Origin: Entoloma clypeatum
Lineage: Eukaryota > Basidiomycota > Agaricomycetes > Agaricales > Entolomataceae
NCBI GenBank assembly: GCA_963565915.1
Contig: OY751485.1
Location: 1-64,000 of the forward strand
DNA length: 64,000 nucleotides
Reading direction: 5' to 3'
In this document: positions 6,885 to 58,102 of the stretch, piece by piece
Position numbering within the stretch: the first letter of the stretch is position 1
Layout: every line of letters starts with the position of its first letter
Notes under the pieces: model-generated
Told to the model about the DNA's origin: nothing
Seen by the model: the letters and a program-made list of their open reading frames with translations, nothing else
Database searches by the model: none
Made by a program: the position numbers and the translations under genes

Positions 6885-7124
6885 TTGAGACTTTGATTTG
6901 GGAACGACTCGCTATTTCGGTTCACTGTGGTGCGCCTTTCTGTCAGTTCGCTGATGGGGATTCCCCATAGCCTTACCCTTGCAGGGTCCTGTAGTCACGT
7001 GTGACTGTGAAGTTTCATGGTTGCACGTGATGGGCGCTGTCTGGGCGAGCGCTGTGTGGCGTCTTCCCTGTCACGCCGCTGTCAGACTAGGCCCAAAAGT
7101 GAACAATAGGCAGAGTCAGCTGTC

Positions 7125-7154
7125 CCAGAGAACAATAGCGTTATTGTTCTCTGG
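7125..7154 (+). other. 30-nt perfect hairpin upstream of ribozyme 1
   Basis: Thirteen bases, CCAGAGAACAATA, a GCGT loop, and the exact reverse complement. It lies 15 bases before the ribozyme. The same hairpin recurs at 7,843, 8,215 and 8,429. Confidence 0.9.
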
Positions 7155-7169
7155 AATGACTCAACGATT

Positions 7170-7248
7170 GCCGTATTCGGACCTGATGAGGCCTTTAAAG
7201 GCCGAAATAGGATCCTGGACTTTCCCCAAGTCCTATTGTCCACTCGGC
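7170..7248 (+). ncRNA. Hammerhead ribozyme 1 (type I)
   Basis: The catalytic core CTGATGA (7,183-7,189) is followed by a GGCC..GGCC stem II hairpin and then GAAA. Stem III begins ATA..TAT and continues GGACTT..AAGTCC. Stem I pairs GGAC (7,179-7,182) with GTCC (7,238-7,241) and, across an internal loop, GCCG with CGGC. The cleavage triplet reads ATT, placing the expected cut between 7,237 and 7,238. The open stem is stem I, hence type I. Core and stems are visible directly; activity is inferred. Confidence 0.9.
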
Positions 7249-7304
7249 ACAGGCCCCACAGTCGCCCCCTTCCATAGTCCTTCTTTGCGAAGGAACTACT
7301 TCTT

Positions 7305-7326
7305 CCCTAACCCCTAACGTTAGGGG
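7305..7326. repeat. Telomere-like tract 2 with opposed units
   Basis: CCCTAACCCCTAAC is followed at once by GTTAGGGG. The 16 bases 7,311-7,326 form a perfect palindrome of two oppositely oriented telomere units. Confidence 0.85.
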
Positions 7327-7842
7327 CTGGGGGTGAGTCCGGCCTTTGCTAGACTCAACGACGGACGTGCGCCCAACCCTAGGGTTGGGTTGGGAATGTG
7401 GGTCATCTCGCTCAGCTGGTGTCGGTTCGAACAATCGACATGTCTAGCGATGAGATGGCTTGCTTGTTCGCCCTTGCTTACTCCAGCTCTGATGTCGACC
7501 ATTGTGTCTGGCGTTTTTACGTACATTTCGTAAATAATGTACTTAGGTGGTTTCCCGTAACTGTTCTTACATGTTACTGGGTATTGGTTAGTTTTCTTGT
7601 TGTGTGTCCTTCGGGATAACGGTCTTCGCCTTCAAAGATCTTCGGACTTTGATGTGGGAGCGATCCGTTATCTCGGTTCACTCGGATCTCACCCGGACCG
7701 TTGGTCCGTGATGGGGATTCCCCATAGCCTTACCTTTGCAGGGTCCTACTCGGGTCCTGTCTTGGCGAGCGCTATTGTGGCGTTTTCCTCTCACGACCTG
7801 TCAGGCGTGTGACGAAGTGGACAATAGGCGGAGTCAGCTGCC

Positions 7843-7870
7843 CAGAGAACAATAGTTCTATTGTTCTCTG
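7843..7870 (+). other. 28-nt perfect hairpin upstream of ribozyme 2
   Basis: CAGAGAACAATAG, TT, and the exact reverse complement. Compared with copy 1, the loop changed from GCGT to a two-base loop with an extra closing pair, while the stem stayed perfect. Confidence 0.9.
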
Positions 7871-7886
7871 AATGACTCAACCGATT

Positions 7887-7966
7887 GCCGTTTTCGGACC
7901 TGATGAGGCCTATAAAGGCCGAAATAGGATCCCGGACTTATCCCAAGTCCTATTGTCCACATCGGC
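7887..7966 (+). ncRNA. Hammerhead ribozyme 2 (type I)
   Basis: Same fold as ribozyme 1: CTGATGA at 7,900-7,906, stem II GGCC TATAAA GGCC, GAAA, stem III closing ATA..TAT, cut expected between 7,954 and 7,955, stem I GGAC/GTCC plus GCCG/CGGC. One base in the stem III bulge differs (CCC for CCT), and one extra A sits in the stem I internal loop. Confidence 0.9.
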
Positions 7967-8018
7967 ACACACAGGCCCTCAGTCGCACTCCTCCTCGCTG
8001 CGCTCGTCGTAGTGCTCC

Positions 8019-8051
8019 ACCCCTAACCCCTAACCCCTAACCCCTAACCCC
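8019..8051 (+). repeat. Telomere-like tract 3 (CCCCTAA x4)
   Basis: Four perfect seven-base CCCCTAA units and a final CCCC, running directly into the truncated fragment 3 (ATAGCC). This is the cleanest tract in the window and fixes the local unit as TTAGGGG on the other strand. Confidence 0.95.
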
Positions 8052-8214
8052 ATAGCCTTACCCTTGCAGGGTCCTGAGGCACGTGCTACTATGAAACTTC
8101 ATGGTGGCACGTGCCTGTGATGGGCGCTGTCTGGGCGAGCGCCGTGTGGCGTCTTCCCTGTCGCGCGACTGTCGGACTGTGTGTCGAAGTGAACAATAGG
8201 CAGAGTCAGCTGCC

Positions 8215-8244
8215 CCAGAGAACAATAGCGTTATTGTTCTCTGG
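8215..8244 (+). other. 30-nt perfect hairpin upstream of ribozyme 3
   Basis: Identical in stem and GCGT loop to the copy at 7,125-7,154. Confidence 0.9.
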
Positions 8245-8260
8245 CATGACTCAACCGATT

Positions 8261-8339
8261 GCCGTTTTCGGACCTGATGAGGCCTATAAAGGCCGAAATA
8301 GGATCCTGGACTTATCCCAAGTCCTATTGTCCACTCGGC
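8261..8339 (+). ncRNA. Hammerhead ribozyme 3 (type I)
   Basis: CTGATGA core, stem II GGCC TATAAA GGCC, GAAA, stem III with GGACTT..AAGTCC, triplet ATT, cut expected between 8,328 and 8,329. Stem I GGAC/GTCC and GCCG/CGGC are intact. Confidence 0.9.
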
Positions 8340-8393
8340 ACAGGCCCCACAGTCGCCCCCTTCCATAGTCCTTCTTTGCGAAGGAACTACTTC

Positions 8394-8405
8394 ACCCCTA
8401 ACCCC
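8394..8405 (+). repeat. Telomere-like tract 4
   Basis: ACCCCTAACCCC, one and a half units, separating fragment 3 from fragment 4. Confidence 0.75.
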
Positions 8406-8585
8406 GACAATAGGCGGAGTCAGCTGCCCAGAGAACAATAGTTCTATTGTTCTATTGTTCTCTGAATGACTCAACCGATTGCCGTTTTCGGACCTGATGA
8501 GGCCTATAAAGGCCGAAATAGGATCCTGGACTTATCCCAAGTCCTATTGTCCACATCGGCACACAGGCCCCTCAGTCGCACTCCT
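8406..8585 (+). mobile_element. Telomere-attached retroelement fragment 4 (shortest)
   Basis: Starts at GACAATAGGCGGAGTCAGCT, the most severe 5' truncation of the four, just before the hairpin. The hairpin (8,429-8,464) has an extra 8-base TTCTATTG duplication in its centre. The ribozyme is intact. The tail matches fragment 2 (CCTCAGTCGCACTCCTCC). Confidence 0.6.
8481..8560 (+). ncRNA. Hammerhead ribozyme 4 (type I)
   Basis: CTGATGA core, GGCC stem II, GAAA, stem III and both stem I helices are all present. Cut expected between 8,548 and 8,549. It shares the extra A in the 3' side of the stem I internal loop with ribozyme 2. Confidence 0.9.
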
Positions 8586-8600
8586 CCCCTAACCCTAACC
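8586..8600 (+). repeat. Telomere-like tract 5 at a Copia break
   Basis: CCCCTAACCCTAACC joined directly to the interior of a Copia gag gene. It looks like new telomere added onto a broken end. Confidence 0.75.
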
Positions 8601-9159
8601 AGGCGTCGGGAATCGCATTGGCCAAGATCATTGCCTGCATCAGATCGGGGACGACAAAATTTGAATCGGCGAGACGGGCGAAGAGAGAGCCCAGGCGTTC
8701 GATTTCAGGGACGGGGTCGCGTCCAGACAGTTTGTAGGTGGCGGCGGCTTTAAAGTCGCCGAAGATGACCGCCGGGGATATCTTGGAGTAGGCGTCTTTC
8801 AACGTTTTCCATGCGCCAAGCGCCGAGGTACTGTCTTTGATGTGACGTCTGATCGCCTCAGAGATTTTCAGGCGTATCGCCCCGAGAGCTACGTCGTCGT
8901 CCCTGATCCAGGCTTTTTCTTCCTTGCGGAAGCCGGGCTGGTCGACCGTGGTAGTCAGCACAGGGGGAGCAGCGGCGGTGGGACCAGGAGTGGAGACCGT
9001 AGTGGTGAAGTCGGCGATCTCGGGACGGGGGATGTCGCCAGAGACGATGCGCCAGACTCCTTGATGGAGGAGGTAGGACTTCATTTTTTCGGCCCAGCTT
9101 TGGTAGTCAATGCCGTCAAAGGGGGCGATGGTGTCAAGAGCAGAGCGAGAGGTAGACAT
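8601..9159 (-). pseudogene. Ty1/Copia gag fragment
   Basis: An open frame starts at 9,159 and reads leftward for about 186 residues until the telomere-like tract interrupts it. The N-terminus (start of MSTSRSALDT, then FDGIDYQSWAEKMKSYLLHQ) and the later ALGAIRLKISEAIRRHI are typical of Copia gag (DUF4219/UBN2 type). Protease, integrase and reverse transcriptase are missing because the element stops at 8,601. The orientation fits the LTR at 9,197-9,831 being the 5' LTR. Confidence 0.8.
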
Positions 9160-9196
9160 TGTAGATGAATCTAAAAAGGGTTCCCAATCAGTGATA

Positions 9197-9831
9197 TGTT
9201 ATGAATATGATTCGAGAAAACAATTTGAATGATTCCTTATGACTTATTCCCTTCAGGAATAGTGGTCATGGGAAAACCCTTCATATGTCAGAATCGTATA
9301 AGGTGCGATCAACGTTTCCACATGGAGTGTACTAGGTCAATCCCCTTAGGGACGTCTCATGACAGGTACTTGTCGTAATGACATTCCCAGGTTCATATGT
9401 GAAGAAGTAAGACTCAGAACCTAGATCTTTCGATCGGTTCTTTGCCAACCAGGGTAGAGTGGGCAGGTACTCGCTGTTGCCAGCGTTTCCCAGGTCCCTC
9501 TGCTATCCGGGGCCCATAACCTGTTGAAGTTCCACCTGGGCGCTAGCCACAGGTGTACTGAGCAACATAGCTACAGTGGAAGTACTCTACGATACCGCTG
9601 TGGTCACTTACATGGTTTGGAGGGGGTAAGGCTAGTGAGAGTGGTTGAGGCTGGTGAGAGCGATGGAGCTGGTTAAGAGTCAAGAGACAACTTGTTGATA
9701 TTGACAGTTTCCTGGTCTTATATACCGTACTACTGTTTGTACCAACCAAACAAGTATGTAATGAAGATATGTAAAGGTCACGTGATGTAATCTAATCTAA
9801 TCTAATCTACGTGATGGGAAAAGTTTCAACA
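9197..9831 (-). mobile_element. Copia 5' LTR (635 bp, inferred)
   Basis: The segment starts TGTTAT and ends CAACA, giving TG..CA ends with a short TGTT/AACA inverted repeat. It ends about 37 bases upstream of the gag start on the minus strand. A TATATACCG TATA-like site and CTAATCTAATCTAATCTA repeats lie inside. No second LTR exists in the window, so the ends are inferred from termini only. Confidence 0.6.
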
Positions 9832-9860
9832 AGTCCTTCTTTGTGAAGGAACTACTTCTT
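9832..9860 (+). mobile_element. Retroelement 3' tail remnant
   Basis: AGTCCTTCTTTGTGAAGGAACTACTTC matches the tail of fragments 1 and 3 with one change. It abuts the Copia LTR on the left and telomere-like repeats on the right, so the Copia element probably landed in an older fragment. Confidence 0.75.
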
Positions 9861-9885
9861 CCCTAACCCCCTCCCCTAACCCCTA
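9861..9885 (+). repeat. Telomere-like tract 6 (innermost)
   Basis: CCCTAACCCCCTCCCCTAAC and CCCTA. It marks the border between the telomere-associated mosaic and gene-bearing DNA. Confidence 0.8.
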
Positions 9886-42631: not shown

Positions 42632-44024
42632 ATGATCATCGATTACACCAAGCAATCACTACCAGATGATGCCATACCGGCTGAGGCTCCGCCTTCTTAC
42701 GACACCGTTGCTGAATCCAGCTTTCATGTTCAGGACGCAAAGACACCGCCGAGGCCCGTTCAGCATCCCATAAATTCACCACCTCACATCCACACACCTC
42801 TCGGCCCAAGTTCTCCCGTCCCAACTATCATAAAATCACCTTCGTCATCGAGTGCAAAGGGGAAGGGCAAGGCGAGCTCCAATTGGTTCAATTTCGGCGC
42901 GTCCAAGACGACACGTGAGGTCCATTCCACCGTCCTGGGGCTCGTTCGAGATCTGGTGCGCGAACAGCAGACAAATGCCAAAGCAGCCTCGGGCATCCTG
43001 GAAAGCTGTGCGGAAGCATGTTTCGGATACGATCTCGCTGTCTCTGATATTCTTCAAGAGAAATCGATAGAGAACCATACCCCGCTATATTGGGCGATCG
43101 TCAAGCGTCCACCAGACGGCGAAGACGGCGATGAAACCTCTGTCCCTGACCTTCTCACCGCGCTCATATCATATGCCAGTCCCCTCACCCCGCAGACGAT
43201 ATCGGACGTCCGACATGCTTGCCTCCTGACATCCGATCAGCTCCTTTTCCAACGCCTGCGAATGTCTCCCGAGTTCGCTCCACTCTCTGGGACTGATGAG
43301 ATGCTTCTCGGCGCAAGGATCCCCCCAGACGAAATCACAGTTGAAGATGTACCAGGAGAAGGAGGTGCCTTTGTTGTAAACTTCAGCATCGTCCATTTCC
43401 AGAAACGAATGCAAGTCTCTCAACGAATCGACCTTGAGTTCATCGCTCGAGGTATGCCACTTTCCAACTCATTCACTATGAGGATACTCTGCTGAGCATG
43501 TTTTCCAGCCCGCATGTGGAAACTGGGATTCTCGATCGCCCAACAGAGCAAGCCTCTCGGTCCACGTCAAGGATCCTGGTGCATCTCGCTCGCCTTACTC
43601 GAAAACAGCCCACCGACTTGGATAGATTCTCGCCTCATCATACCCGACCCTTCCCCCACTCCTACTAGCCCTTCTCCGCCTACACTACCGTCCTCACCAT
43701 CTCTCTTAGACCGCGTAAGAGCCGGGAGTAACAGCGGTAAACCCCCAATCGTCCTTCGGCTGAAATCATCCCAGCAACTCGTCGCACCCCTTGTGTCCCG
43801 ACGGGATCATAGACAGACCACTGTGATTATGGTATCGCTCGAGGATAGCGCGGCGGCTACCAGTCTTCAGTACTCGTAAGTTATACGGTCCGTTTCTTCC
43901 TTGGCTCCGTTCACCATTCTCCCCTATCAGGGGCACACCTTACATCTTACCTGACGAGACGCTCAGAGCACGTCTAGAAGCGGGGCTCGGACGATCTTCG
44001 GAAGGGGAGTGTGTGATATGCTAG
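42632..44024 (+). CDS. Hypothetical protein with PPSY-rich N-terminus
   Basis: Three exons. Exon 1 runs from ATG 42,632 (MIIDYTKQSLPDDAIPAEAP PSYDTV) to FIARG. An intron GTATGCC..TTCCAG (43,450-43,509) leads to RMWKLGFSIAQQSKPLGPRQ. A GTAAGTTATA..TATCAG intron near 43,879 leads to a last exon GTPYILPDETLRARLEAGLG and ECVIC, stop at 44,022-44,024. Ending at the in-frame TAA at 43,877 is the alternative. The frame is open upstream to 42,356 (FVEKDKTHY). The middle has NHTPLYWAIVKRPPDGEDGD, ankyrin-like. A mushroom family without known function. Its first part (to 42,939) lies outside the duplicated block. Confidence 0.65.
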
Positions 44025-44355
44025 CAACTGGATAGGTACGGCACCATCGCGGTTGCGGGCTCTCGCCTGTCTGCGTCATGCCATGCTGGCCATACTATTA
44101 CGGCGGTTACCGAACGAGGGACCTAAATCAGTCTTGATGAAGGCTGCAAGGGAGGGATCCGGACTCAGGATTCGTCAATTTAGCCAATGCTGGGTGTCTT
44201 GGCCTTGTCTTAACACTGGGATACGATAACAACTCACAGTATTAGATTGATATTGACCTCTCTCATCGTATTTGACAGCCTTTTTTGTTTACAGCTTACA
44301 ACCTCGTACTGCACCTTTGATCAATCAGTATACATGCGACATCCAACAGTACTCG

Positions 44356-44450
44356 TCGGGTATGGTGTAACGGCTAACATTGCCGCCTCTCATGAATTCC
44401 ATATCAAGTGGTTCTCGCGGCAGCTCGGGGTTCGATTCCCCGTACCCGAA
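44356..44450 (+). tRNA. tRNA-Glu(CUC) with 23-nt intron
   Basis: The acceptor TCGGGTA pairs with TACCCGA. The anticodon stem GCCGC pairs with GCGGC. The loop is C T CTC A..C with anticodon CTC. A 23-base intron (TGAATTCCATATCAAGTGGT and TCT) follows position 37. T arm CGGGG TTCGATT CCCCG. Length without the intron is 72. Confidence 0.93.
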
Positions 44451-44903
44451 TTGTACATTTTTGTTCTGTCTATGTTCCTTCTGTTCCGAAGACCCTGTGT
44501 TTTTTTTAGTAGCCATACTACTGTGGGAGGTCGTGACCGGGTAAAGACTGGAGCGTCAAATTTGAAAGTGAAATTTGAAAGTGGGTTATGCCACGTATAG
44601 CAGGTTGGGGGGTTTGGGTCATTGGGAGACACGAGTCGTTATCGCACTGACGCGTATAGAATGTCTTCGTAGTGCCCATTGGCTGAACTCCTAATGAGTA
44701 TGCGCCAAAATCAGACCATCAACTCCCATCAAGTGGACAAAACAACAATAATTCCATAGCAGCACATCGACAAGATGACGAGGACAAATGAAACTACGAT
44801 CATGAAATCCGACGAAAGACCGGCTCTAGTATTTGACCTCGGAGCTCTGACGACAGCTGTAAGTGCGCGCAATCATGAGGGTTGTGACCGCAGACTGACC
44901 GTC

Positions 44904-45206
44904 TTAAACAGGGATGTTGTGTCCCCCAGGGTGACCGACGGGCAACTTCTTCTCGCACGCCTATATTTCACGTCAGTCATGGGCAATCTTCGTAGACCGA
45001 CGACTTACCCCCGTTTTATGATTACAAAAATAATGAGCAGCCGTGTCGCAAGGCTGGGTACAGATGATTGGCTTGTCTCCGACAGGGTGGCCATGGTCTC
45101 CTAACTCTGGCTTTTCAAGAGGATGGTTTTGTACGGCTGGCCTATCTGCAAAGGCGCTGACGGCGCAGAGCACGACGGAGAGGGCGAGAGTGCGAGAAAA
45201 ATGCAT
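44904..45206 (-). CDS. Small secreted cysteine-containing protein (84 aa)
   Basis: Two exons, 45,206-45,009 and 44,960-44,904, joined by GTAAGTCG..ATATAG. The start MHFSRTLALSVVLCAVSAFA is a clear signal peptide. The mature part is about 64 residues, rich in His, Pro and Gly, with four cysteines (ICTQPC, YFCNH, ACEKK) and a HPGGHNIPV end. No family recognised. Size, secretion and cysteine content fit the small secreted proteins that fungi use outside the cell. A longer in-frame start at 45,293 would bury the signal peptide, so I prefer 45,206. Confidence 0.65.
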
Positions 45207-45299
45207 GCTGAGGGGAGCGATGATCAAGTGGCTGGAAGACTTGTTGTCTTGAAGGTCCTCTAGTGTCCTTCTTATACACGTCCGACTTGTCACTTGATG

Positions 45300-45914
45300 T
45301 TATTTTCGCACTGCGGGAGATTCGACGGTGGAAATGGACGGTGAAACACGATGATGGAATAAGTCCCGATCGGAGGCATTACCCGCGAGACCCTTGGACA
45401 ACGTCAGGGAGACACGCAGTACCACTGTGGAGGCAAAGATGGTGATGTTGCGATCTTTCGATGTCGGCCGTTTTCGTAGATTTCCGGGGAACGGGCCTAC
45501 GTCTCCGGCAATTCTACACGATACACGGCGGCTGAAGAGAACTTGAACCAAGCGTGTGCATGAGCCTTTATTGAAAGAGGAAGAGTCATCATCGAGGAAA
45601 GGGAATTCGAAAAAGTGGAGAACAGTGGTATGATATTCACCATCCTTCCAGGACTTGTCCGAGTCTGTGATCAGAGGGGCGAATGTCAGTGACCTTGCGA
45701 CAACCTTGCCATGCCATGGCTGGAGATGCCACGTCGATGTCGTCTCAATGAGGCCGTCCTCACCGATAATCTGCGGCAACTCGGACACCATGACCCTCAG
45801 CCGCAGGGCAGCAAGTCCAAGCCCCTTATTGAAGAAAACCATTTTTCCCCCTTCAACCTGTAGAGAGACCGTGGTCAGGGTGGCGCGGCAAGTTGATTTG
45901 CCGTGGGAAAGCAA
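45300..45914 (-). CDS. Possible hypothetical protein (204 aa)
   Basis: An uninterrupted frame with ordinary amino-acid composition, for example GGKMVFFNKGLGLAALRLRV and HFFEFPFLDDDSSSFNKGS. No domain, signal or homologue recognised. It could be a chance frame. Confidence 0.3.
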   Translation of the reverse strand: MLSHGKSTCRATLTTVSLQVEGGKMVFFNKGLGLAALRLRVMVSELPQIIGEDGLIETTSTWHLQPWHGKVVARSLTFAPLITDSDKSWKDGEYHTTVLHFFEFPFLDDDSSSFNKGSCTRLVQVLFSRRVSCRIAGDVGPFPGNLRKRPTSKDRNITIFASTVVLRVSLTLSKGLAGNASDRDLFHHRVSPSISTVESPAVRK

Positions 45915-46712
45915 GTCCGCCTCGTATTTGGTGTCCGTTTTTCTCCCAGCCCCTCGGGATCTCCCTGTTGTGCAGCGCTCTCAGGCTTCCTTGGGAGTCG
46001 AACACGTATCCTCAGTATGTGGCTTTCAGAGGAGTATGTGGCTTTCACAAGTTCATCGAACGTTCGAACTTTTGCTCACATCAGGTTGCTCATGAGATAG
46101 GTCTGGCCAACACAAAGAGAGTCCTGAACAAACTCAGGTCTTGATGAAACATTACAATATCTCGCTGTTAGAGATGTCTCCCCGATCACATCCTCTCCAA
46201 CCATGGCAAACGTATCTCGTCGTTCGCAATCCTGGTTTTTCATGTTTGTTTACATCGGCGTTGGACACCTCGGAATTTTGGACAGAACTTATCGTGTCGC
46301 ATCCCAGACTTGCCAATGGGTACTCTGAAGCATACAATATCCCCCGATGCCGTTCTCTCGCTCTCAAAGCGGATGGGGGGCTGATCGTGCCCTATTCCCG
46401 CTGCTAGTAGAGATGATTATGCTACGAGTCCTCTTCTAGAGAGCTTTTCGATCGTATTTTACGGGAAATTCAATGAATCCCTTCAATCTTACTGCCTCTT
46501 CCTATCACAACCATTCCTGCACCACATTTTCCGCTTCGGCGCCCGCGCCCCTTGCCTCCCTCCCCCCGATCACCTTCCCAACTTGAATGGCCAGTTTAAA
46601 GTTGATCGCTCGTCAGTGTTCCAAGGGAAATACTTTTGATATGTACATGAGCTCGCGGGACATCCCGCAGAAGTGACCTTACGTAACACGTATCCTTCTT
46701 CCCAACCACCGC
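45915..46712. other. No gene seen
   Basis: Upstream region of the glycosyltransferase gene. The short phrase AGTATGTGGCTTTCA is directly repeated near 46,015 and 46,033. No coding signal. Confidence 0.4.
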
Positions 46713-48168
46713 ATGCAAAGTCGATGGCATTTTCCCCGTCTGCGCCTCCTTCCAACTGCCGCCGTCTGTCTCGTCGTCTTTTTTACCTACTTCATCTCCT
46801 TTGACTTCTACACCCGCTATTCCAGGCGCACCTCCATCTCGGACGTCTCTGACCCCCTCCTACCCAGCAACACATACGACACTTCCATCAAGATCCTCCT
46901 AGTTTCCGCCCTCTTCCCGCTTCCTCAGTCTAAACACACTCACGAAGAGTACAGATCATGGCTCTCCAACTTCCTCTCTCGTATCTCGACATCCGACATC
47001 TACTTCTACACTACGCCCGACCTTGAGTCTCTCGTGCGGGATCTGCATGCTAATGCCAATACCACAACATCGCTGACGATCAACACTGACTATTCCTCAC
47101 CCCTGCTCGTGCCTCCACTGCTTCCGTACAAAGACAAGTACGCCCAGATGCACGAATGGGACCGAGAAAAATCCCGACACTCGCCAGAGTTGTACGCCGT
47201 CTGGAACGCCAAGCCGTGGTTCCTCGACTCGGCCGTTCAAAAAGCGGGGCACGAGTATGACTATGCCTTCTGGGTGGACGCAGGGAGCTTCAGGCACGAG
47301 CACGCGTATGGCCGGTGGCCGGACGCACGGCGCGTAGACGAGGTGTGGGAGCAGGCATATAGGCTCTCGAGGAAAGATGGGCTGAGAGGGAAAGGGGACT
47401 TGATGTTGATACCGGCGTTTGAGCTGCCGGGAAGGGCCGAGATAGGTTGGAGCAAGGAGCACGGGCCGGTTGACATCGATTTTAGTGAAGGTATAAATAT
47501 TATTGTTGGCTTTTCATCCCATTGCTGATTTTCGAACCCTCGCACTCGCAGGCACGTTCTTCGGCTCTACACCTGCCACGATATCCTGGTACGCCACGGT
47601 ATTCTACCGATATCACAACCGCTACATATCTACGACCCCGTCCGCTCTTGCTTCTCCCCGGCATCCGCACGGACCGCCCCTAGCGACCCCACCGCCGTTC
47701 CATTTTGTAGGGAAGGATCAAACCCTCATCAACGCGCTCCTCTTCCTATACCCACACCGGTTCTTCACTATTGTCGCACCACAACATCACGGACTTCTCC
47801 CACCTCCGACCTCATCCTCATCGACCACCACCACCACACCTGCCATCAAGAAGCCCTTCTACATTGGCGCTCGCTTCCGCACCCTCTTCAGAGCGCGGCT
47901 TTTCGACAAACTTCGTGGGAAGAACGGACCCTGCGGGGACGAGTGGTTTTATTTCCAGTATTGGCTTGCTTCGCCGTCCGAGCGGAGGCGGATGAGTAGC
48001 GAGTTGTGGCCTTCAAGACCCGGGAAGGCCGTGAGATGGGTTGAGAGCTGGGTGAGAGGTAGAGCAGAGGAGCGGTGTGGGCTAACAGACGTGGTAACTG
48101 TCGAGGGGATGTTGAGGGCGCTTTTTGGTGGGCGGTGGGTGGAGCGGGTGAGGGCATGGGGCGAATGA
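46713..48168 (+). CDS. HtrL/YibB-like glycosyltransferase, type II membrane
   Basis: Two exons. Exon 1 from ATG 46,713 ends DIDFSEG at a GTATAAATA donor (about 47,492). The acceptor CTCGCAG near 47,552 continues TFFGSTPATISWYATVFYRY. About 465 residues. The N-terminus MQSRWHFPRLRLLPTAAVCL and VVFFTYFISFDFY forms one membrane anchor with a basic flank, as for Golgi type II enzymes. KILLVSALFPLPQSKHTHEE, ELYAVWNAKPWFLDSAVQKA and YDYAFWVDAGSFRHEH resemble the HtrL/YibB fold, with the DAG acidic motif. FHFVGKDQTLINALLFLYPH follows. A polyserine/threonine loop sits near residue 365. Substrate unknown. Confidence 0.7.
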
Positions 48169-48334
48169 AGGCGAGGCTAGCAAGGAACGGTGGCGAGCGA
48201 ATCATGCATATAGTTGAATAATTGTTCGTCATGCTCCGTGTATCATATATCTATCTGATCATCTTCCGCTCTCTCAGATCTCAGACTTTGAGTCCTTATC
48301 TCCCTAATTACCGTTGTGTTAGTGTCAGTATGGA

Positions 48335-50767
48335 TCACGATTGAACAGTCTTCTTGAATCCTGACGGTGTAACGCTTCCTTCCCCCGACTCTACATCATG
48401 ACGCCTGTTTCGTGACGGGTCCAGAGCAGGTTCTGCCGCCTTCTCCACAACGTCAACTCGCGCAGCTGCCGCATCTGAGCCTCTACGTGTCAAGTCCTTA
48501 TGCTTGATCATCGTGATGCTCGCGAGGGTCGCAGTAGCACACAAAGAAGCATTTAAAATGAATATCGATCTGATTCCTCTCGTATAGCCGTAATTGAGGA
48601 TGTACGATGCTTCCGAGGGCAAGAGATCAGCTTGAGCCGGGTTGTTCAGGATATGCGGATTAGCGATGACGCTGGAGATCGTGGAGTCAGGGATCCTGAG
48701 TCGGTGCATGGAGGACTTGAGAGAGTTGTTTCTGCGGAACACGATTAGCTGCATGGCGCAGTCAATTTGCTAGCAGGACTGACATGATCGCTGCGCAAAT
48801 CGCCAGGGAGAATGCCCCTCCAAGCAGGCGTACGAACTGTAGAAGACAGTGAACTCCAGGCAATTGATGAACGTAGAACCACTTACGTTGCGAAAGGCTG
48901 TCACGACCGACATGTCTTTCCGGGGGACGCTGGCCTGAGCAGCTACTGTCGTGGTTTGCAAAGTCTGCGGGGAAGAAGCCATCATGCTATCCAATCACAT
49001 ATCTCAGACGATGAAAAACTCGCCATGCCTGCGCCAACACCAGCTAGAAGCATAGAAATCACGAGAGGGGCTTTGTGGACTTTCGGAGTAATGGTCGAAA
49101 GGCAGCCGTCGGCTACGGCCCAAAGGGTAAACCCAGCATGAATTATAGTCTGCGATAGTGGGGTTGGTTCATCTGTGGTGGGAAAGAAAGTGACATACGC
49201 GATATCTCCCCGTGCGGCTGACAGCTACCCCCTGTTACAAGGTTCATTAGAAGTTCGAGCTCGGAAACCTGTAAAATACTCACAGCGAGCCAAGCTGAAG
49301 TGGTCTGACTCGCCAGCAGCGAGATCAGGAAGACTCCTGCTTTAATGGGGGTGTACCCAAGAGCTACTTGGAAGAACTGTGGAAGATAATAAATGGATGA
49401 GAAGAACACGAATCCGCTGATCGAATTTTCAACTCATCGTCGAACTGTAGTCGAAGCTGATGAATAACTTACTTGATGAACATGGTGATATAAACCCCCG
49501 TCACAGTTGCATGCTTGAAAATATACACTGTCATTTGACACGTCAGCTGAAAGTGCTCTATATAACCAAGACTCACTCGGGACTACAGGAAGTTTAGCCC
49601 CCTTCCATTCCCAGAGGCAAAAAAGGACTATGACAACGCAGCCCGAGAAAAGCGGAGCCAGAACCGTCGCAGATTTCCAGGGGAATGTAACTCCTCCCTG
49701 GAGCAAGCTGGTCAGACGCAAGGTTTGCGGACGAATAAGCTCTCGAAAATACCCAGATCAGCGGTAGCATAATCAGTGCGCATCCACTCAAAACCATGCC
49801 AGCTCCAAGGTAATCAATGGCACGCAGTTTTCTGGGAATAAACAAATGCAGAATAGGCGCTGCATCAGTAGTGTTCAAGTTCGGGAAGGTCCATCATTAC
49901 CTCCACACATCTCCTTGCACTGGTTTCAGGGGTAAAACGAATATGACAATACAGATCGCCATGAATGAGATCGGAGCATTGATCCAAAAACACCACTAAG
50001 CGTGTGTATTTAGTCTGTACGTGCCGCAAATCTAACATGGAACACTGACCCTCCAGCTAACCTTCTCCGATAGCGCGCCACCGATCACTGGGCCAATAGC
50101 GTATCCCAACGCGATAGCACCTCCGATAATCCCTTGATATTTTCCTCTGACTTATCTCAGCGTCTGCACGGGGAAGTAATAAAATGACGCACCTATCTCT
50201 CAAACTGACGATGTCAGAAATTACAATCTGTGCGATGCTAATAATACCGCCTAAAAAGGGTGAGGAACGTCATTTGGAAGATTGACAATTGTTTGACTGA
50301 CCTCCGCCGGCACCAGCGAACCCTCGAAAGATGATCACCTGCAAGATGCTCTTCGAGAACCCAGCAACGAGGTTCCCAAGCATGAAAACGGACATTGCGA
50401 AAGTCAGGACATTCTTCCTTCCAAAAATGTCACTGAACCGGCCGTAGAGAGGTTGGAAACTCGTTGAAGTCAACAAGTACGCAGAGGGGACCCAGGAGCT
50501 GATGGACCCAGCATCGAATGCGGCGGATATAGTCGGGAGAGAAGCGGCAACAACGACAGAGTCCAAGGTCGAGACCACTATGCAAAGTGCCAAACCGGAG
50601 AAAACGGCGAGGACCTGTCTGAAAGGAAGCAAATTGGTTTGGTCAGTCAAAGTAACGTCGTTTTCTTCCCCCTCAGCTTGGATTTCCAACTGAACATGTG
50701 CAGAAGAGGTGGTCCCAGCGTCATGGGTGGGCGTCGAGGGGGCACTGGATTCATGAAGAGCCATCAT
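48335..50767 (-). CDS. MFS transporter, DHA2-like (14 TM)
   Basis: Many short exons on the minus strand from ATG 50,767 (or 50,764). The N-terminal 50 residues are acidic and cytosolic. TM1 is VLAVFSGLALCIVVSTLDSV followed by VAASLPTISAAF. Motif A is GRFSDIFGRKNV. Later segments include IDYLGAGMVLSGCALIMLPL, ATVLAPLFSGCVVIVLFCLW, VFFSSIYYLPQFFQVALGYT and PIKAGVFLISLLASQ. The last exon has GYTRGIRSIFILNASLCATA then MIKHKDLTRR and a stop at 48,335. The family exports drugs or metabolites using the proton gradient at the plasma membrane. Intron borders are approximate. No broken frame noticed. Confidence 0.8.
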
Positions 50768-51261
50768 GAGGTTGACATCGGAAATGACGAGTGAAAAAGC
50801 ATCGGCAATTCACGGCATCGCTGGATGGGGTCGGAGCTTGAAGTTCAGCTCCGATCTGGACGATATTACGGCGGTCTGCAGTGTGTATCAAGTGCGTGAT
50901 TGGGGCGATTCGCGCTGGAAGTTACATACGTTCTTTTTAGGCTCCCTTTGAGTCTTCAATTTCAATTGCAACTCTGAAAGAAAAAGTTGCGGTCTTCGAC
51001 CTTTATACCTTAATCCGTAGCTCCGAGTCGAACGTGAGCCTCTCCATGACAGCGTTGACAGGGATAAACATTTTATAATCAAGTATACCCTTCACGCGCA
51101 TGGTGCGCGGGGGACCCCACACGGACCTTTAAGCTTTATGTTCCATACGTTAACCTAATGATGCAACACCTTTGTAGATGTGCTTCCAGTTTCATGTAGA
51201 ATTATTCAACGTTCATATTTATTGTACCATTCAAAAGCCTACTCCATTTACATTACGATGA
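50768..51261. other. No gene seen
   Basis: Upstream region of the MFS gene. Frames are short and shadow-like. Confidence 0.4.
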
Positions 51262-51511
51262 CATAGAGATGCTCTTCTTCGAAATTCTCCGAAAAAAAGT
51301 GGCAACACCCTCTTCACAGGTGGCACTGACGGCGGTGCATCATACAGGTTGAGCTCTACAATCTGCTAGGTGAGATCGTGGTTGGTGGAATGGAAGCCTT
51401 CCATCGATCAAGGGTGGTGGCGTCGACATGTTCAATCGAAATTTTCACCGAAAAGATGGGATTGGCGTCTTCACCAAGCACCAGACAGTTGAGGCTGTTT
51501 GCAGCGGACAT
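51262..51511 (-). pseudogene. Crinkler (CRN)-like N-terminal fragment
   Basis: From ATG 51,511: MSAANSLNCLVLGEDANPIF SVKIS, then HVDATTLDRWKASIP. This resembles the N-terminal ubiquitin-like header of fungal Crinkler proteins (LNCLVLGDD.. then VDA..LWKVSIP), with the middle apparently deleted. Further on, VELNLYDAPPSVPPVKRVLP recalls the usual header end. A one-base difference between the two assembly copies here (51,391 versus 61,158 area) changes the frame, and stops follow in either. No C-terminal effector domain is attached. Described as a broken remnant. Confidence 0.4.
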
Positions 51512-51775
51512 GATGAATGCTGAATGTGAACAACCCTACGTGTTCAGCATGGAATCAACGGCGAATCTTGAGGCGTTCGAACTCACGGGGAGATGCAACA
51601 TCAGTACAACATCATTATAACGATCAGATTTCGGTTGCCGCCGAGAAACGCTTCTGATGGATGCGTGTCTTTTGCATGCCACATCAATGAAAAACAGAAA
51701 TGTTCAGTGTCGATAAATAAGAAAACTAAATTGCATATTCTAATATTGAAAACAAGGGATGAAGATCTGTAAAGA

Positions 51776-52508
51776 TCACGAAAGACTCGCCATCTCTGCG
51801 CGAGCAGACCGCAGTGCCACGACCATAACATACACCTTTTCCCACATATCATATACATCCCGCATATGCCTGATACTCCTCACCCGCGGGAACCGTCGAT
51901 CAAAACATCTCGCAAGCGTCAAGAGCTCCGGAGTCGTGGCGTACGGGCTGTTATGACACCCGACCACCAGCTCTTCGAGCACAGAATCCGTCCTCGCCGT
52001 TGCCGCTGCCGCCGCCGAAAAGTCCTTGACATATATCGGCATCTGCACATGCTTCAACCGCGGGCACATCCCCGACAGCGTAAACAGCGCCGACAAGGAC
52101 GGCTCCGCGCCGGCCGCTGCGATCCTGGCGTCCAGTGGGAGATCCAGTGCCTCGAGCGACCCCCACGCCGCGGCGAACTGGCGGATGTCGTCGTTGGAGA
52201 AGACCATCGTGTACCGGTCGATGCGGAAGGACGTGAGCCGGGAGAGGCGGAGGACCGGCGCGATGTCGGCCATGGCGAGGATGGCCTGTTCCCAGTCTGT
52301 TTCTTGGTCGAGCGTCATGCTCGTCAGGGACGACGACCAGTGCTCGCAGATCTTGTTGAGGAGGTGCGTCAGGTGGGATTCCCAGCCCTGGGCCAACGGC
52401 GCTGGGGGAGCCACGATGGCGAGCGAGGCAAGATCGACCTTGGAGGAGAGGTTGCCGAGGATGGTGTTCATGAGGGAGTAGGGTGCTGTTAGACGGAGGG
52501 CGGTTAGG
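51776..52508 (-). CDS. F-box/LRR-type protein, cut by the assembly gap
   Basis: C-terminal 244 residues of the gene that is complete at 61,544-63,152 (same sequence, for example LDLPLDARIAAAGAEPSLSA). The N-terminal part is lost at the N gap, so this is an assembly truncation. Confidence 0.8.
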
Positions 52509-52708: not shown

Positions 52709-53792
52709 GCTCGTTCGAGATCTGGTGCGCGAACAGCAGACAAATGCCAAAGCAGCCTCGGGCATCCTGGAAAGCTGTGCGGAAGCATGTTCCGGATACG
52801 ATCTCGCTGTCTCTGATATTCTTCAAGAGAAATCGATAGAGAACCATACCCCGCTATATTGGGCGATCGTCAAGCGTCCACCAGACGGCGAAGACGGCGA
52901 TGAAACCTCTGTCCCTGACCTTCTCACCGCGCTCATATCATATGCCAGTCCCCTCACCCGCAGACGATATCGGACGTCCGACATGCTTGCCTCCTGACAT
53001 CCGATCAGCTCCTTTTCCAACGCCTGCGAATGTCTCCCGAGTTCGCTCCACTCTCTGGGACTGATGAGATGCTTCTCGGCGCAAGGATCCCCCCAGACGA
53101 AATCACAGTTGAAGATGTACCAGGAGAAGGAGGTGCCTTTGTTGTAAACTTCAGCATCGTCCATTTCCAGAAACGAATGCAAGTCTCTCAACGAATCGAC
53201 CTTGAGTTCATCGCTCGAGGTATGCCACTTTCCAACTCATTCACTATGAGGATACTCTGCTGAGCATGTTTTCCAGCCCGCATGTGGAAACTGGGATTCT
53301 CGATCGCCCAACAGAGCAAGCCTCTCGGTCCACGTCAAGGATCCTGGTGCATCTCGCTCGCCTTACTCGAAAACAGCCCACCGACTTGGATAGATTCTCG
53401 CCTCATCATACCCGACCCTTCCCCCACTCCTACTAGCCCTTCTCCGCCTACACTACCGTCCTCACCATCTCTCTTAGACCGCGTAAGAGCCGGGAGTAAC
53501 AGCGGTAAACCCCCAATCGTCCTTCGGCTGAAATCATCCCAGCAACTCGTCGCACCCCTTGTGTCCCGACGGGATCATAGACAGACCACTGTGATTATGG
53601 TATCGCTCGAGGATAGCGCGGCGGCTACCAGTCTTCAGTACTCGTAAGTTATACGGTCCGTTTCTTCCTTGGCTCCGTTCACCATTCTCCCCTATCAGGG
53701 GCACACCTTACATCTTACCTGACGAGACGCTCAGAGCACGTCTAGAAGCGGGGCTCGGACGATCTTCGGAAGGGGAGTGTGTGATATGCTAG
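52709..53792 (+). pseudogene. Partial second copy of the PPSY-rich hypothetical gene
   Basis: Lacks the first ~310 bases because of the gap. Near 52,958 it has CACCCGCAG where the left copy has CACCCCGCAG, a one-base loss in a C run that breaks the frame. One substitution changes CFGYD to CSGYD. Probably contig-end error rather than a real pseudogene. Confidence 0.75.
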
Positions 53793-54123
53793 CAACTGGA
53801 TAGGTACGGCACCATCGCGGTTGCGGGCTCTCGCCTGTCTGCGTCATGCCATGCTGGCCATACTATTACGGCGGTTACCGAACGAGGGACCTAAATCAGT
53901 CTTGATGAAGGCTGCAAGGGAGGGATCCGGACTCAGGATTCGTCAATTTAGCCAATGCTGGGTGTCTTGGCCTTGTCTTAACACTGGGATACGATAACAA
54001 CTCACAGTATTAGATTGATATTGACCTCTCTCATCGTATTTGACAGCCTTTTTTGTTTACAGCTTACAACCTCGTACTGCACCTTTGATCAATCAGTATA
54101 CATGCGACATCCAACAGTACTCG

Positions 54124-54218
54124 TCGGGTATGGTGTAACGGCTAACATTGCCGCCTCTCATGAATTCCATATCAAGTGGTTCTCGCGGCAGCTCGGGGTT
54201 CGATTCCCCGTACCCGAA
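54124..54218 (+). tRNA. tRNA-Glu(CUC), second assembly copy
   Basis: Identical to 44,356-44,450, including the 23-base intron. Confidence 0.9.
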
Positions 54219-54671
54219 TTGTACATTTTTGTTCTGTCTATGTTCCTTCTGTTCCGAAGACCCTGTGTTTTTTTTAGTAGCCATACTACTGTGGGAGGTC
54301 GTGACCGGGTAAAGACTGGAGCGTCAAATTTGAAAGTGAAATTTGAAAGTGGGTTATGCCACGTATAGCAGGTTGGGGGGTTTGGGTCATTGGGAGACAC
54401 GAGTCGTTATCGCACTGACGCGTATAGAATGTCTTCGTAGTGCCCATTGGCTGAACTCCTAATGAGTATGCGCCAAAATCAGACCATCAACTCCCATCAA
54501 GTGGACAAAACAACAATAATTCCATAGCAGCACATCGACAAGATGACGAGGACAAATGAAACTACGATCATGAAATCCGACGAAAGACCGGCTCTAGTAT
54601 TTGACCTCGGAGCTCTGACGACAGCTGTAAGTGCGCGCAATCATGAGGGTTGTGACCGCAGACTGACCGTC

Positions 54672-54974
54672 TTAAACAGGGATGTTGTGTCCCCCAGGGT
54701 GACCGACGGGCAACTTCTTCTCGCACGCCTATATTTCACGTCAGTCATGGGCAATCTTCGTAGACCGACGACTTACCCCCGTTTTATGATTACAAAAATA
54801 ATGAGCAGCCGTGTCGCAAGGCTGGGTACAGATGATTGGCTTGTCTCCGACAGGGTGGCCATGGTCTCCTAACTCTGGCTTTTCAAGAGGATGGTTTTGT
54901 ACGGCTGGCCTATCTGCAAAGGCGCTGACGGCGCAGAGCACGACGGAGAGGGCGAGAGTGCGAGAAAAATGCAT
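54672..54974 (-). CDS. Small secreted protein, second assembly copy
   Basis: Identical to the 84-residue protein at 44,904-45,206, with the same two exons. Confidence 0.6.
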
Positions 54975-55067
54975 GCTGAGGGGAGCGATGATCAAGTGGC
55001 TGGAAGACTTGTTGTCTTGAAGGTCCTCTAGTGTCCTTCTTATACACGTCCGACTTGTCACTTGATG

Positions 55068-55682
55068 TTATTTTCGCACTGCGGGAGATTCGACGGTGGA
55101 AATGGACGGTGAAACACGATGATGGAATAAGTCCCGATCGGAGGCATTACCCGCGAGACCCTTGGACAACGTCAGGGAGACACGCAGTACCACTGTGGAG
55201 GCAAAGATGGTGATGTTGCGATCTTTCGATGTCGGCCGTTTTCGTAGATTTCCGGGGAACGGGCCTACGTCTCCGGCAATTCTACACGATACACGGCGGC
55301 TGAAGAGAACTTGAACCAAGCGTGTGCATGAGCCTTTATTGAAAGAGGAAGAGTCATCATCGAGGAAAGGGAATTCGAAAAAGTGGAGAACAGTGGTATG
55401 ATATTCACCATCCTTCCAGGACTTGTCCGAGTCTGTGATCAGAGGGGCGAATGTCAGTGACCTTGCGACAACCTTGCCATGCCATGGCTGGAGATGCCAC
55501 GTCGATGTCGTCTCAATGAGGCCGTCCTCACCGATAATCTGCGGCAACTCGGACACCATGACCCTCAGCCGCAGGGCAGCAAGTCCAAGCCCCTTATTGA
55601 AGAAAACCATTTTTCCCCCTTCAACCTGTAGAGAGACCGTGGTCAGGGTGGCGCGGCAAGTTGATTTGCCGTGGGAAAGCAA
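55068..55682 (-). CDS. Possible hypothetical protein, second assembly copy
   Basis: Same 204-residue frame as 45,300-45,914, with the same doubts. Confidence 0.3.
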   Translation of the reverse strand: MLSHGKSTCRATLTTVSLQVEGGKMVFFNKGLGLAALRLRVMVSELPQIIGEDGLIETTSTWHLQPWHGKVVARSLTFAPLITDSDKSWKDGEYHTTVLHFFEFPFLDDDSSSFNKGSCTRLVQVLFSRRVSCRIAGDVGPFPGNLRKRPTSKDRNITIFASTVVLRVSLTLSKGLAGNASDRDLFHHRVSPSISTVESPAVRK

Positions 55683-56480
55683 GTCCGCCTCGTATTTGGT
55701 GTCCGTTTTTCTCCCAGCCCCTCGGGATCTCCCTGTTGTGCAGCGCTCTCAGGCTTCCTTGGGAGTCGAACACGTATCCTCAGTATGTGGCTTTCAGAGG
55801 AGTATGTGGCTTTCACAAGTTCATCGAACGTTCGAACTTTTGCTCACATCAGGTTGCTCATGAGATAGGTCTGGCCAACACAAAGAGAGTCCTGAACAAA
55901 CTCAGGTCTTGATGAAACATTACAATATCTCGCTGTTAGAGATGTCTCCCCGATCACATCCTCTCCAACCATGGCAAACGTATCTCGTCGTTCGCAATCC
56001 TGGTTTTTCATGTTTGTTTACATCGGCGTTGGACACCTCGGAATTTTGGACAGAACTTATCGTGTCGCATCCCAGACTTGCCAATGGGTACTCTGAAGCA
56101 TACAATATCCCCCGATGCCGTTCTCTCGCTCTCAAAGCGGATGGGGGGCTGATCGTGCCCTATTCCCGCTGCTAGTAGAGATGATTATGCTACGAGTCCT
56201 CTTCTAGAGAGCTTTTCGATCGTATTTTACGGGAAATTCAATGAATCCCTTCAATCTTACTGCCTCTTCCTATCACAACCATTCCTGCACCACATTTTCC
56301 GCTTCGGCGCCCGCGCCCCTTGCCTCCCTCCCCCCGATCACCTTCCCAACTTGAATGGCCAGTTTAAAGTTGATCGCTCGTCAGTGTTCCAAGGGAAATA
56401 CTTTTGATATGTACATGAGCTCGCGGGACATCCCGCAGAAGTGACCTTACGTAACACGTATCCTTCTTCCCAACCACCGC

Positions 56481-57936
56481 ATGCAAAGTCGATGGCATTT
56501 TCCCCGTCTGCGCCTCCTTCCAACTGCCGCCGTCTGTCTCGTCGTCTTTTTTACCTACTTCATCTCCTTTGACTTCTACACCCGCTATTCCAGGCGCACC
56601 TCCATCTCGGACGTCTCTGACCCCCTCCTACCCAGCAACACATACGACACTTCCATCAAGATCCTCCTAGTTTCCGCCCTCTTCCCGCTTCCTCAGTCTA
56701 AACACACTCACGAAGAGTACAGATCATGGCTCTCCAACTTCCTCTCTCGTATCTCGACATCCGACATCTACTTCTACACTACGCCCGACCTTGAGTCTCT
56801 CGTGCGGGATCTGCATGCTAATGCCAATACCACAACATCGCTGACGATCAACACTGACTATTCCTCACCCCTGCTCGTGCCTCCACTGCTTCCGTACAAA
56901 GACAAGTACGCCCAGATGCACGAATGGGACCGAGAAAAATCCCGACACTCGCCAGAGTTGTACGCCGTCTGGAACGCCAAGCCGTGGTTCCTCGACTCGG
57001 CCGTTCAAAAAGCGGGGCACGAGTATGACTATGCCTTCTGGGTGGACGCAGGGAGCTTCAGGCACGAGCACGCGTATGGCCGGTGGCCGGACGCACGGCG
57101 CGTAGACGAGGTGTGGGAGCAGGCATATAGGCTCTCGAGGAAAGATGGGCTGAGAGGGAAAGGGGACTTGATGTTGATACCGGCGTTTGAGCTGCCGGGA
57201 AGGGCCGAGATAGGTTGGAGCAAGGAGCACGGGCCGGTTGACATCGATTTTAGTGAAGGTATAAATATTATTGTTGGCTTTTCATCCCATTGCTGATTTT
57301 CGAACCCTCGCACTCGCAGGCACGTTCTTCGGCTCTACACCTGCCACGATATCCTGGTACGCCACGGTATTCTACCGATATCACAACCGCTACATATCTA
57401 CGACCCCGTCCGCTCTTGCTTCTCCCCGGCATCCGCACGGACCGCCCCTAGCGACCCCACCGCCGTTCCATTTTGTAGGGAAGGATCAAACCCTCATCAA
57501 CGCGCTCCTCTTCCTATACCCACACCGGTTCTTCACTATTGTCGCACCACAACATCACGGACTTCTCCCACCTCCGACCTCATCCTCATCGACCACCACC
57601 ACCACACCTGCCATCAAGAAGCCCTTCTACATTGGCGCTCGCTTCCGCACCCTCTTCAGAGCGCGGCTTTTCGACAAACTTCGTGGGAAGAACGGACCCT
57701 GCGGGGACGAGTGGTTTTATTTCCAGTATTGGCTTGCTTCGCCGTCCGAGCGGAGGCGGATGAGTAGCGAGTTGTGGCCTTCAAGACCCGGGAAGGCCGT
57801 GAGATGGGTTGAGAGCTGGGTGAGAGGTAGAGCAGAGGAGCGGTGTGGGCTAACAGACGTGGTAACTGTCGAGGGGATGTTGAGGGCGCTTTTTGGTGGG
57901 CGGTGGGTGGAGCGGGTGAGGGCATGGGGCGAATGA
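56481..57936 (+). CDS. HtrL/YibB-like glycosyltransferase, second assembly copy
   Basis: Same two-exon gene as 46,713-48,168. I saw no difference in the protein. Confidence 0.7.
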
Positions 57937-58102
57937 AGGCGAGGCTAGCAAGGAACGGTGGCGAGCGAATCATGCATATAGTTGAATAATTGTTCGTCAT
58001 GCTCCGTGTATCATATATCTATCTGATCATCTTCCGCTCTCTCAGATCTCAGACTTTGAGTCCTTATCTCCCTAATTACCGTTGTGTTAGTGTCAGTATG
58101 GA

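What the first reader, a model, noticed from the sequence alone, without database searches (positions are those of the whole stretch)
7170..8560. Four intact type I hammerhead ribozymes in a telomere-repeat mosaic
Each of four copies has the complete core (CTGATGA, GGCC stem II, GAAA), a stem III, an ATT cleavage triplet, and a two-part stem I with an internal loop that could make the usual loop-loop contact with stem II. Differences fall in loops and bulges, not in the core. Hammerheads are known from Penelope-like elements and retrozymes. Finding them in a fungal telomere-linked array suggests that processing of a telomeric retroelement RNA is conserved here.
Basis: partly seen in the sequence, partly recalled or inferred. 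Interest (0 to 1): 0.9.

Follow-up and report, generated by a model that had tools for sequence, protein, structure and literature searches.

The report
Hammerhead ribozymes in telomeric fungal retroelement
Near one end of a fungal chromosome sit four copies of a self-cutting RNA motif; they are the tails of a retrotransposon that attaches itself to telomeres, and the tails also carry a sequence that may hold the cutter switched off.

Summary
Four complete type I hammerheads lie at 7169-7249, 7886-7967, 8260-8340 and 8480-8561 (+). Rfam gives only sub-threshold HH9 matches (E 0.0009-0.22), but each motif folds alone into the hammerhead, a generic descriptor finds these four and none in 100 simulated windows, and the genome holds 125 copies. 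The core is intact in 69 of 69 copies found through the upstream flank alone.

They are the 3' ends of a telomere-attached, endonuclease-lacking Penelope-like element: a 4809-bp unit with an open 1191-aa reverse transcriptase frame. 70 of 70 copies near ends of contigs of known length have the polarity expected for priming on the telomeric G-overhang. Rotifer Terminons share this plan, so the kind is known.

Differences: helix III is real (7 bp), whereas Penelope hammerheads are described as usually minimal. A 12-nt strand about 84 nt upstream matches the complement of the cleavage strand at 11-12 of 12 (65 of 73 copies) and is predicted to close the ribozyme. All four full-length insertions examined cross the 5' cleavage site, so their templates were uncut there or rejoined. 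This weakens the "processing" reading and suggests an off-switch. Catalysis is untested.

The parts
6886..7318 (+). Element copy 1 (A-type), 5'-truncated after telomeric repeat, 3' tail CTTCCCTAACCCCTAA
7099..7110 (+). Upstream strand GTGAACAATAGG of copy 1; complementary to cleavage strand at 11 of 12
7125..7154 (+). Hairpin between upstream strand and hammerhead, copy 1
7169..7249 (+). Type I hammerhead 1; predicted cleavage between 7237 and 7238
7305..8051 (+). Element copy 2 (B-type), longest in the window, with its telomeric tail
7817..7828 (+). Upstream strand GTGGACAATAGG of copy 2; complementary at 12 of 12
7886..7967 (+). Type I hammerhead 2; predicted cleavage between 7954 and 7955
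8019..8051 (+). (CCCCTAA)n tract after copy 2
8052..8405 (+). Element copy 3, 5'-truncated directly at telomeric repeat, with short telomeric tail
8189..8200 (+). Upstream strand GTGAACAATAGG of copy 3; complementary at 11 of 12
8260..8340 (+). Type I hammerhead 3; predicted cleavage between 8328 and 8329
8406..8599 (+). Element copy 4, shortest, truncated inside the upstream strand (only GACAATAGG, 8406-8414, is left), with telomeric tail
8480..8561 (+). Type I hammerhead 4; predicted cleavage between 8548 and 8549
9832..9870 (+). Solo A-type 3' tail without hammerhead: a fifth, very short remnant

Best explanation
The four hammerheads are the 3'-terminal ribozymes of four 5'-truncated copies of one telomere-attached, endonuclease-deficient Penelope-like retroelement. 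Shown by sequence: a 4809-bp unit with one ORF for a telomerase-like reverse transcriptase; a 3' region with hairpin, hammerhead and CCCTAACC tail that is repeated upstream of the ORF in full-length insertions; truncated 5' ends joined to telomeric repeat; fixed polarity at chromosome ends. Inferred: the RNA's CCCCUAACCCC anneals to the TTAGGGG overhang of a chromosome end, the element's RT copies the RNA from there toward its 5' end and usually stops early, and telomerase caps the new end. The hammerhead is a full type I with helix III and is probably catalytically competent (inferred). The RNA that serves as template is usually not cut; I infer that the conserved upstream complement of the cleavage strand helps to keep the ribozyme closed in template RNA, so that cutting would happen in other RNAs (nascent, read-through, or copies truncated inside that strand, such as window copy 4).
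For: Hammerhead; 125 genome copies, 0 in reversed control; core intact in 69 of 69 flank-found copies. Carrier: 1191-aa ORF between hammerheads, seven copies at 100% rounded identity without stops on six contigs; reverse transcriptase domain over the Pfam cut-off in homolog P0001, model of P0001 ranks telomerase RT 1-5 in the PDB. Telomere attachment: CCCTAACC within 130 nt after the hammerhead in 69 of 73 copies; 42 truncation junctions at 39 positions directly behind telomeric repeat; 40 of 40 copies near left ends on +, 30 of 30 near right ends on -. Upstream strand: 34 copies at 12/12 and 31 at 11/12 of 73, against 1 of 20000 shuffles reaching 11; occupancy falls to 0.000 in copies 1-3 when it is included. 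Uncut templates: four of four readable full-length insertions cross the 5' site.
Against: No cleavage was measured. Rfam does not reach its gathering score. Covariation is one double change, no better than 52 of 500 shuffles, and 3 of 10 aligned variants break one stem I pair; one of 73 copies has a disrupted stem II. The element's own ORF matches no Pfam family, and other RTs follow telomerase closely in the fold search, with TM-scores only 0.23-0.39 for the telomerase entries among the first ten. Scrambling the upstream strand raises occupancy only to medians of 0.018, 0.005 and 0.009, and in a longer fold it pairs with the cleavage strand in copies 1 and 2 but not 3 and 4. 15 of 100 listed copies are internal. 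A template that was cut and rejoined would look the same as an uncut one.
Confidence: 0.8

Rival explanations
1. 5'-end processing: cleavage in the upstream hammerhead makes the 5' end of the genomic RNA, which is then reverse transcribed.
For: Conserved core; two insertions start exactly at the cleavage product, C13:12427 and C2:300.
Against: Four of four readable full-length insertions cross the 5' site. Starts near the site are common: +41/42 at two places, +51 to +53 at one, +59/60 at one, +61 at one, so two at +55 are only suggestive. Closed fold predicted in context.
Confidence: 0.2
2. Circular or multimeric template: two hammerheads 4809 nt apart cut a transcript, the unit is closed into a circle, and RT primed at the internal CCCCUAACCCC runs round it more than once; this would give the partial second 3' region upstream of the ORF.
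For: Full-length insertions are a unit plus 484 nt or more of a second round, always joined CCCCTAACCCC/CTCTTGACTG, with different 5' limits (-484, -659, -745) and different 3' neighbours.
Against: A linear transcript of an existing copy with the same repeat at both ends explains this equally; no circle evidence was sought or available.
Confidence: 0.12
3. The three-way junction is conserved as a landing structure for the RT or as an RNA shape, not for catalysis.
For: The neighbouring hairpin also looks conserved; templates are seen uncut; PMC11167929 (passages) reports for an Anolis element that cleavage was not needed in vitro.
Against: The catalytic residues themselves, not only the stems, are invariant in 69 of 69 copies.
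Confidence: 0.2
4. Chance resemblance to a hammerhead.
For: No gathering-level Rfam match.
Against: Descriptor 4 against 0 in 100 simulations; hammerhead is the MFE fold in 4 of 4; HH9 E 0.0009; conserved island.
Confidence: 0.01

Closest known systems
Endonuclease-deficient telomere-associated Penelope-like elements of fungi (PMC3846280, passages; clade name Coprina listed in PMC6515669, passages; that Coprina is the fungal clade is recalled)
   Same: Telomerase-like RT, no GIY-YIG domain found in the proteins scanned, 5' truncation with telomeric repeats, fungal host.
   Different: Clade membership not tested by a tree; whether their hammerheads are described I could not check, as the primary papers are not held.
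Terminons / Athena elements of bdelloid rotifers (PMC6431247, passages)
   Same: Hammerhead at the 3' end followed by reverse-complement telomeric repeats; 5'-truncated head-to-tail arrays at chromosome ends.
   Different: 4.8-kb single-ORF unit against giant multi-ORF elements up to 40 kb; fungal host; helix III present.
Minimal type I hammerheads of Penelope-like elements (PMC6155905, PMC7761336, passages)
   Same: Type I; located in the repeated terminal region of Penelope-like elements.
   Different: Those usually lack helix III or the loop contacts; here helix III has 7 bp and a 16-nt cap, and a complement of the cleavage strand lies upstream.
Retrozymes (PMC7761336, PMC6155905, passages)
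   Same: Hammerheads in repeated ends of a retroelement.
   Different: Retrozymes are non-autonomous; this family has an intact RT frame.
Rfam Hammerhead_HH9, RF02275
   Same: Core, stem II and outer stem I align.
   Different: About half the gathering score at best; 23 nt in the helix III cap where the model has 4.

Membership tests
Type I hammerhead ribozyme | Core CUGANGA ... GAA and UH before the cleavage site | tested here: met
   4 of 4 in the window; 69 of 69 flank-found copies for CTGATGA and GAA, 68 of 68 judgeable for ATTGTCC
Type I hammerhead ribozyme | Three helices, stem I open, stems II and III capped | tested here: met
   MFE fold of 4 of 4
Type I hammerhead ribozyme | Curated covariance score | tested here: not met
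   No match at gathering score; HH9 sub-threshold, E 0.00091-0.22
Type I hammerhead ribozyme | Self-cleavage at the predicted site | not testable with these tools
   Needs RNA
Type I hammerhead ribozyme | Stem I loop / loop II tertiary contact | not tested
   Loops are present; no 3D test was made
Penelope-like element | Telomerase-like RT | tested here: met
   Homolog P0001 ranks telomerase RT 1-5, weak TM-scores; no tree with named Penelope proteins was built
Penelope-like element, endonuclease-deficient | No GIY-YIG endonuclease | tested here: met
   No such Pfam match in 3 proteins of the element and 5 homologs
Penelope-like element | Pseudo-LTR: terminal region repeated at both ends | tested here: met
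   Four of four readable full-length insertions; 3 of 7 full-length ORFs were not readable
Telomere-associated Penelope-like element / Terminon plan | 3' hammerhead next to reverse-complement telomeric repeat; polarity at ends | tested here: met
   69 of 73 copies; 70 of 70 near ends of contigs of known length
Terminon | Giant multi-ORF unit | tested here: not met
   Unit of 4809 bp, one long ORF
Retrozyme | Short non-autonomous unit without RT | tested here: not met
   1191-aa RT frame inside the unit
Coprina clade | Placement in the RT tree | not tested
   No named reference sequences at hand

The most novel reading that the evidence does not exclude
The element carries a built-in ribozyme switch. 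A conserved 12-nt strand about 84 nt upstream pairs with the hammerhead's cleavage strand and so keeps the 3' priming tail on the template RNA; the hammerhead fires only in nascent RNA or in copies that have lost this strand. One telomeric retroelement would then separate template RNA from processed RNA by a change of fold, with a helix-III-bearing hammerhead unlike the minimal ones described for Penelope-like elements.
Probability: 0.25. Interest if true: 0.75.

Novelty: new variant of a known kind. Interest (0 to 1): 0.55.

Why it matters
The activity in vivo and the role of Penelope and Terminon hammerheads are called 'still a mystery' in PMC7761336 (passages). Here 125 near-identical copies, many with exact telomeric junctions, record which RNAs became templates. 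A full helix III should allow a single-molecule cleavage assay, and the upstream complement gives one sharp, cheap test of whether the ribozyme is regulated. It also shows the hammerhead-plus-telomere-complement plan, which the papers read describe for rotifers, in a fungus.

Tried and rejected
Rejected: chance motif; retrozyme (the family has its own RT frame); spread without regard to telomeres (polarity).

Led nowhere: Rfam at gathering score in the window and in seven other stretches. RT relatives in viral contigs: 3 pattern stretches, none confirmed. Hammerhead pattern in viral contigs: 0. Covariation: one double change, not above shuffles. PDB by sequence: one weak hit, Drt3a reverse transcriptase, E 0.086 and 0.011. 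Naming the species with a window ORF: one unnamed hit.

Outputs not used because the script was at fault: (constraint not enforced; replaced); the hairpin count (ill-fitting pattern, 0 of 73); the stem III probabilities printed (misindexed); row L050 (wrong CTGATGA picked; L050 is placed correctly). In one search the far-upstream figures (251/326 and 105/200 for A against C) count gaps as differences and include a C-only insert and, for the A copy, neighbouring DNA beyond its truncation point, so I lean only on the stretches next to the hammerhead.

Considered and kept weak: the two insertions that start at the cleavage site.

Full report
What is there. The window is the first 64 kb of contig C1 of a genome of 60,075,725 bases in 20 contigs. 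A 33-nt hammerhead core stretch lies at 7183, 7900, 8274 and 8494 on the + strand and nowhere else in the window at up to 3 mismatches. Each copy carries CUGAUGA, stem II, GAA, a stem III AUAGGAU/GUCCUAU, an AUU triplet and a two-part stem I. Alone, each folds to the hammerhead as its minimum-free-energy structure. A generic descriptor finds exactly these four and none in 100 simulated windows. Rfam reports nothing at gathering score and HH9 below it, E 0.00091 to 0.22.

Genome-wide set. The core pattern with up to 3 mismatches occurs 125 times, the reversed control 0 times (100 of the 125 places are listed). To avoid selecting for intact cores I masked the hammerhead and looked for copies through the upstream flank in 23 stretches (the window, 20 stretches and 2): 69 copies, CTGATGA and GAA intact in 69 of 69, ATTGTCC in 68 of 68, one copy being cut by the end of its stretch. 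Copies that begin inside the hammerhead are outside this count by design; one of them has a disrupted stem II (1 of 73 copies found by core). In L027 stem II's first pair is A-T instead of G-C. Between one copy each of subfamilies A and C the hammerhead is 82/87 identical, against 74/96 just upstream and 37/66 just downstream. Most variants differ in the stem I internal loop, loop II and the helix III cap; 3 of 10 aligned variants break one stem I pair each, and the single double change is no better than 52 of 500 shuffles. The copies are too alike for a real covariation test.

The carrier. Between two hammerheads 4.8 kb apart lies one open frame of 1191 aa. It is found in seven copies at 100% (rounded) identity without stops on six contigs, and in older copies down to 83% (39 matches scored of 47 candidates). 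There are 321 homologs at E <= 0.001 of the candidates scored; 120 are listed, and the organisms named there are Armillaria ostoyae and Lentinula edodes. Pfam does not recognise the element's own ORF. It finds a reverse transcriptase just over the cut-off in P0001 and below it in P0035 and P0060, and no GIY-YIG domain in the 8 proteins scanned. A model of P0001 (mean pLDDT 70.3, 19 sequences) has telomerase reverse transcriptase at ranks 1-5 of the PDB search, with low TM-scores and other RTs close behind. By established knowledge, a telomerase-like RT without endonuclease attached to telomeres is an endonuclease-deficient Penelope-like element; PMC3846280 (passages) states that fungi hold only this kind, and PMC7473861 (passages) reports Penelope-like elements linked to telomeres in Agaricus bisporus.

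How it attaches. In 69 of 73 copies a CCCTAACC tail follows within 130 nt of the hammerhead; 4 have none. The tail runs into more telomeric repeat or straight into the next, 5'-truncated copy. Outside the telomere-like tracts inside the element and outside full-length starts, 42 junctions with telomeric repeat were mapped to 39 different positions of the element; some copies start in non-telomeric DNA instead. Of the 100 places listed, 85 are on contigs whose length I knew: 40 of 40 within 40 kb of a left end are on +, 30 of 30 near a right end on -, and 15 are internal, 14 of them on C2; 15 places on C6 and C11 were not classed. This is the polarity expected if the RNA's CCCCUAACCCC anneals to the G-overhang and is copied from there. 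In the window the four copies are stacked head to tail, with one more solo tail at 9832-9870. The contig starts with minisatellite-like DNA, not telomeric repeat, so this mosaic lies about 7 kb inside it.

Is the RNA cut before it is copied? Of the seven full-length ORF copies I could read four with their upstream side (C1, C5, C8, C13). All four have a partial second 3' region upstream of the ORF, joined at CCCCTAACCCC/CTCTTGACTG, with different 3' neighbours; the 5' limits are -484 (C8), -659 (C1, inside a telomere-like tract and so ambiguous) and -745 (C5) from CTGATGA, while the C13 stretch began inside the copy. These insertions cross the 5' cleavage site. An RNA cut there would still be a competent template and would have left inserts that start at the site, so this is informative. 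That 68 of 68 flank-found copies cross the 3' site is less so, because a template cut there loses its priming tail and could not be inserted. The templates were thus uncut, or cut and rejoined. [quoted passage not shown] Two insertions start exactly at the cleavage product (C13:12427, C2:300), each with one T that may belong to either side. Nearby starts also exist (+41/42 at two places and +51 to +53 at one; +59/60 at one; +61 at one, +2 and +99 twice each), so this is suggestive only.

A possible off-switch. GTGGACAATAGG or GTGAACAATAGG, usually 83-85 nt before CTGATGA, is complementary to the cleavage strand CCTATTGTCCAC at 12 of 12 (34 copies) or 11 of 12 (31 copies) of 73; the other 8 reach 6-9. 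A match of 11 or more arose in 1 of 20000 shuffles. I noticed the complementarity in a fold before testing it, so the figure is not free of selection. Predicted hammerhead occupancy in copies 1, 2 and 3 is 0.086, 0.393 and 0.172 with 80 nt of upstream sequence and 0.000 with 90 nt or more; copy 4, truncated inside this strand, goes from 0.729 to 0.083 at 90 nt and 0.050 at 150 nt. Scrambling the 12 nt raises occupancy in 39, 40 and 39 of 40 trials, but only to medians of 0.018, 0.005 and 0.009, so other upstream pairing competes too. In a 215-nt fold the strand pairs with the cleavage strand at about 0.9 probability in copies 1 and 2 but not in copies 3 and 4, where yet another fold wins. This is thermodynamics without tertiary contacts or kinetics.

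Compared with what is known. Reviews describe Penelope and Terminon hammerheads as minimal, usually lacking helix III or the loop contacts, with a role that is still a mystery (PMC6155905, PMC7761336; passages), and Terminons as hammerhead followed by reverse-complement telomeric repeats, 5'-truncated and in arrays (PMC6431247, passages). The architecture is thus of a known kind. The differences are the fungal host, a 4.8-kb single-ORF unit, a real helix III, and the upstream strand. Searches of the held library for hammerheads in fungal Penelope elements (listings, with passages of eight papers read) showed no such report, but the primary papers are not held, so I cannot say that it is unpublished. 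The species was not identified.

Noticed in passing
window 42940-52508 and 52709-62276: A 9.57-kb block is present twice, 99.96% identical, about 200 bp apart: a recent duplication or an assembly artefact.
   Followed up: partly
window 8572-9198 (-): A Copia-type gag frame (PF14223, E 1.9e-14) directly abuts the telomeric tail of copy 4, in the opposite orientation.
   Followed up: no
L033 (C2:5575001-5585000), around 3300: A run of N is followed by telomeric repeat, with element copies in opposite orientations on the two sides: probably two chromosome ends joined in scaffolding. C11 4727787(-)/4729701(+) shows the same opposed orientation.
   Followed up: partly
L027 (C2:765264-768423), reverse strand: Older internal copy with many transitions that still keeps the hammerhead, with a G-C to A-T double change in stem II.
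   Followed up: partly
window 7125-7154 and the matching places of copies 2-4: A long hairpin (CCAGAGAACAATA/TATTGTTCTCTGG) just upstream of the hammerhead repeats the CAATAG/CTATTG word of the upstream strand and cleavage strand, a nested set of inverted repeats.
   Followed up: partly
L045 4700-4850 (between ORF end and 3' region): The element carries degenerate telomere-like tracts inside its own 3' untranslated region (-753 to -629 from CTGATGA).
   Followed up: no
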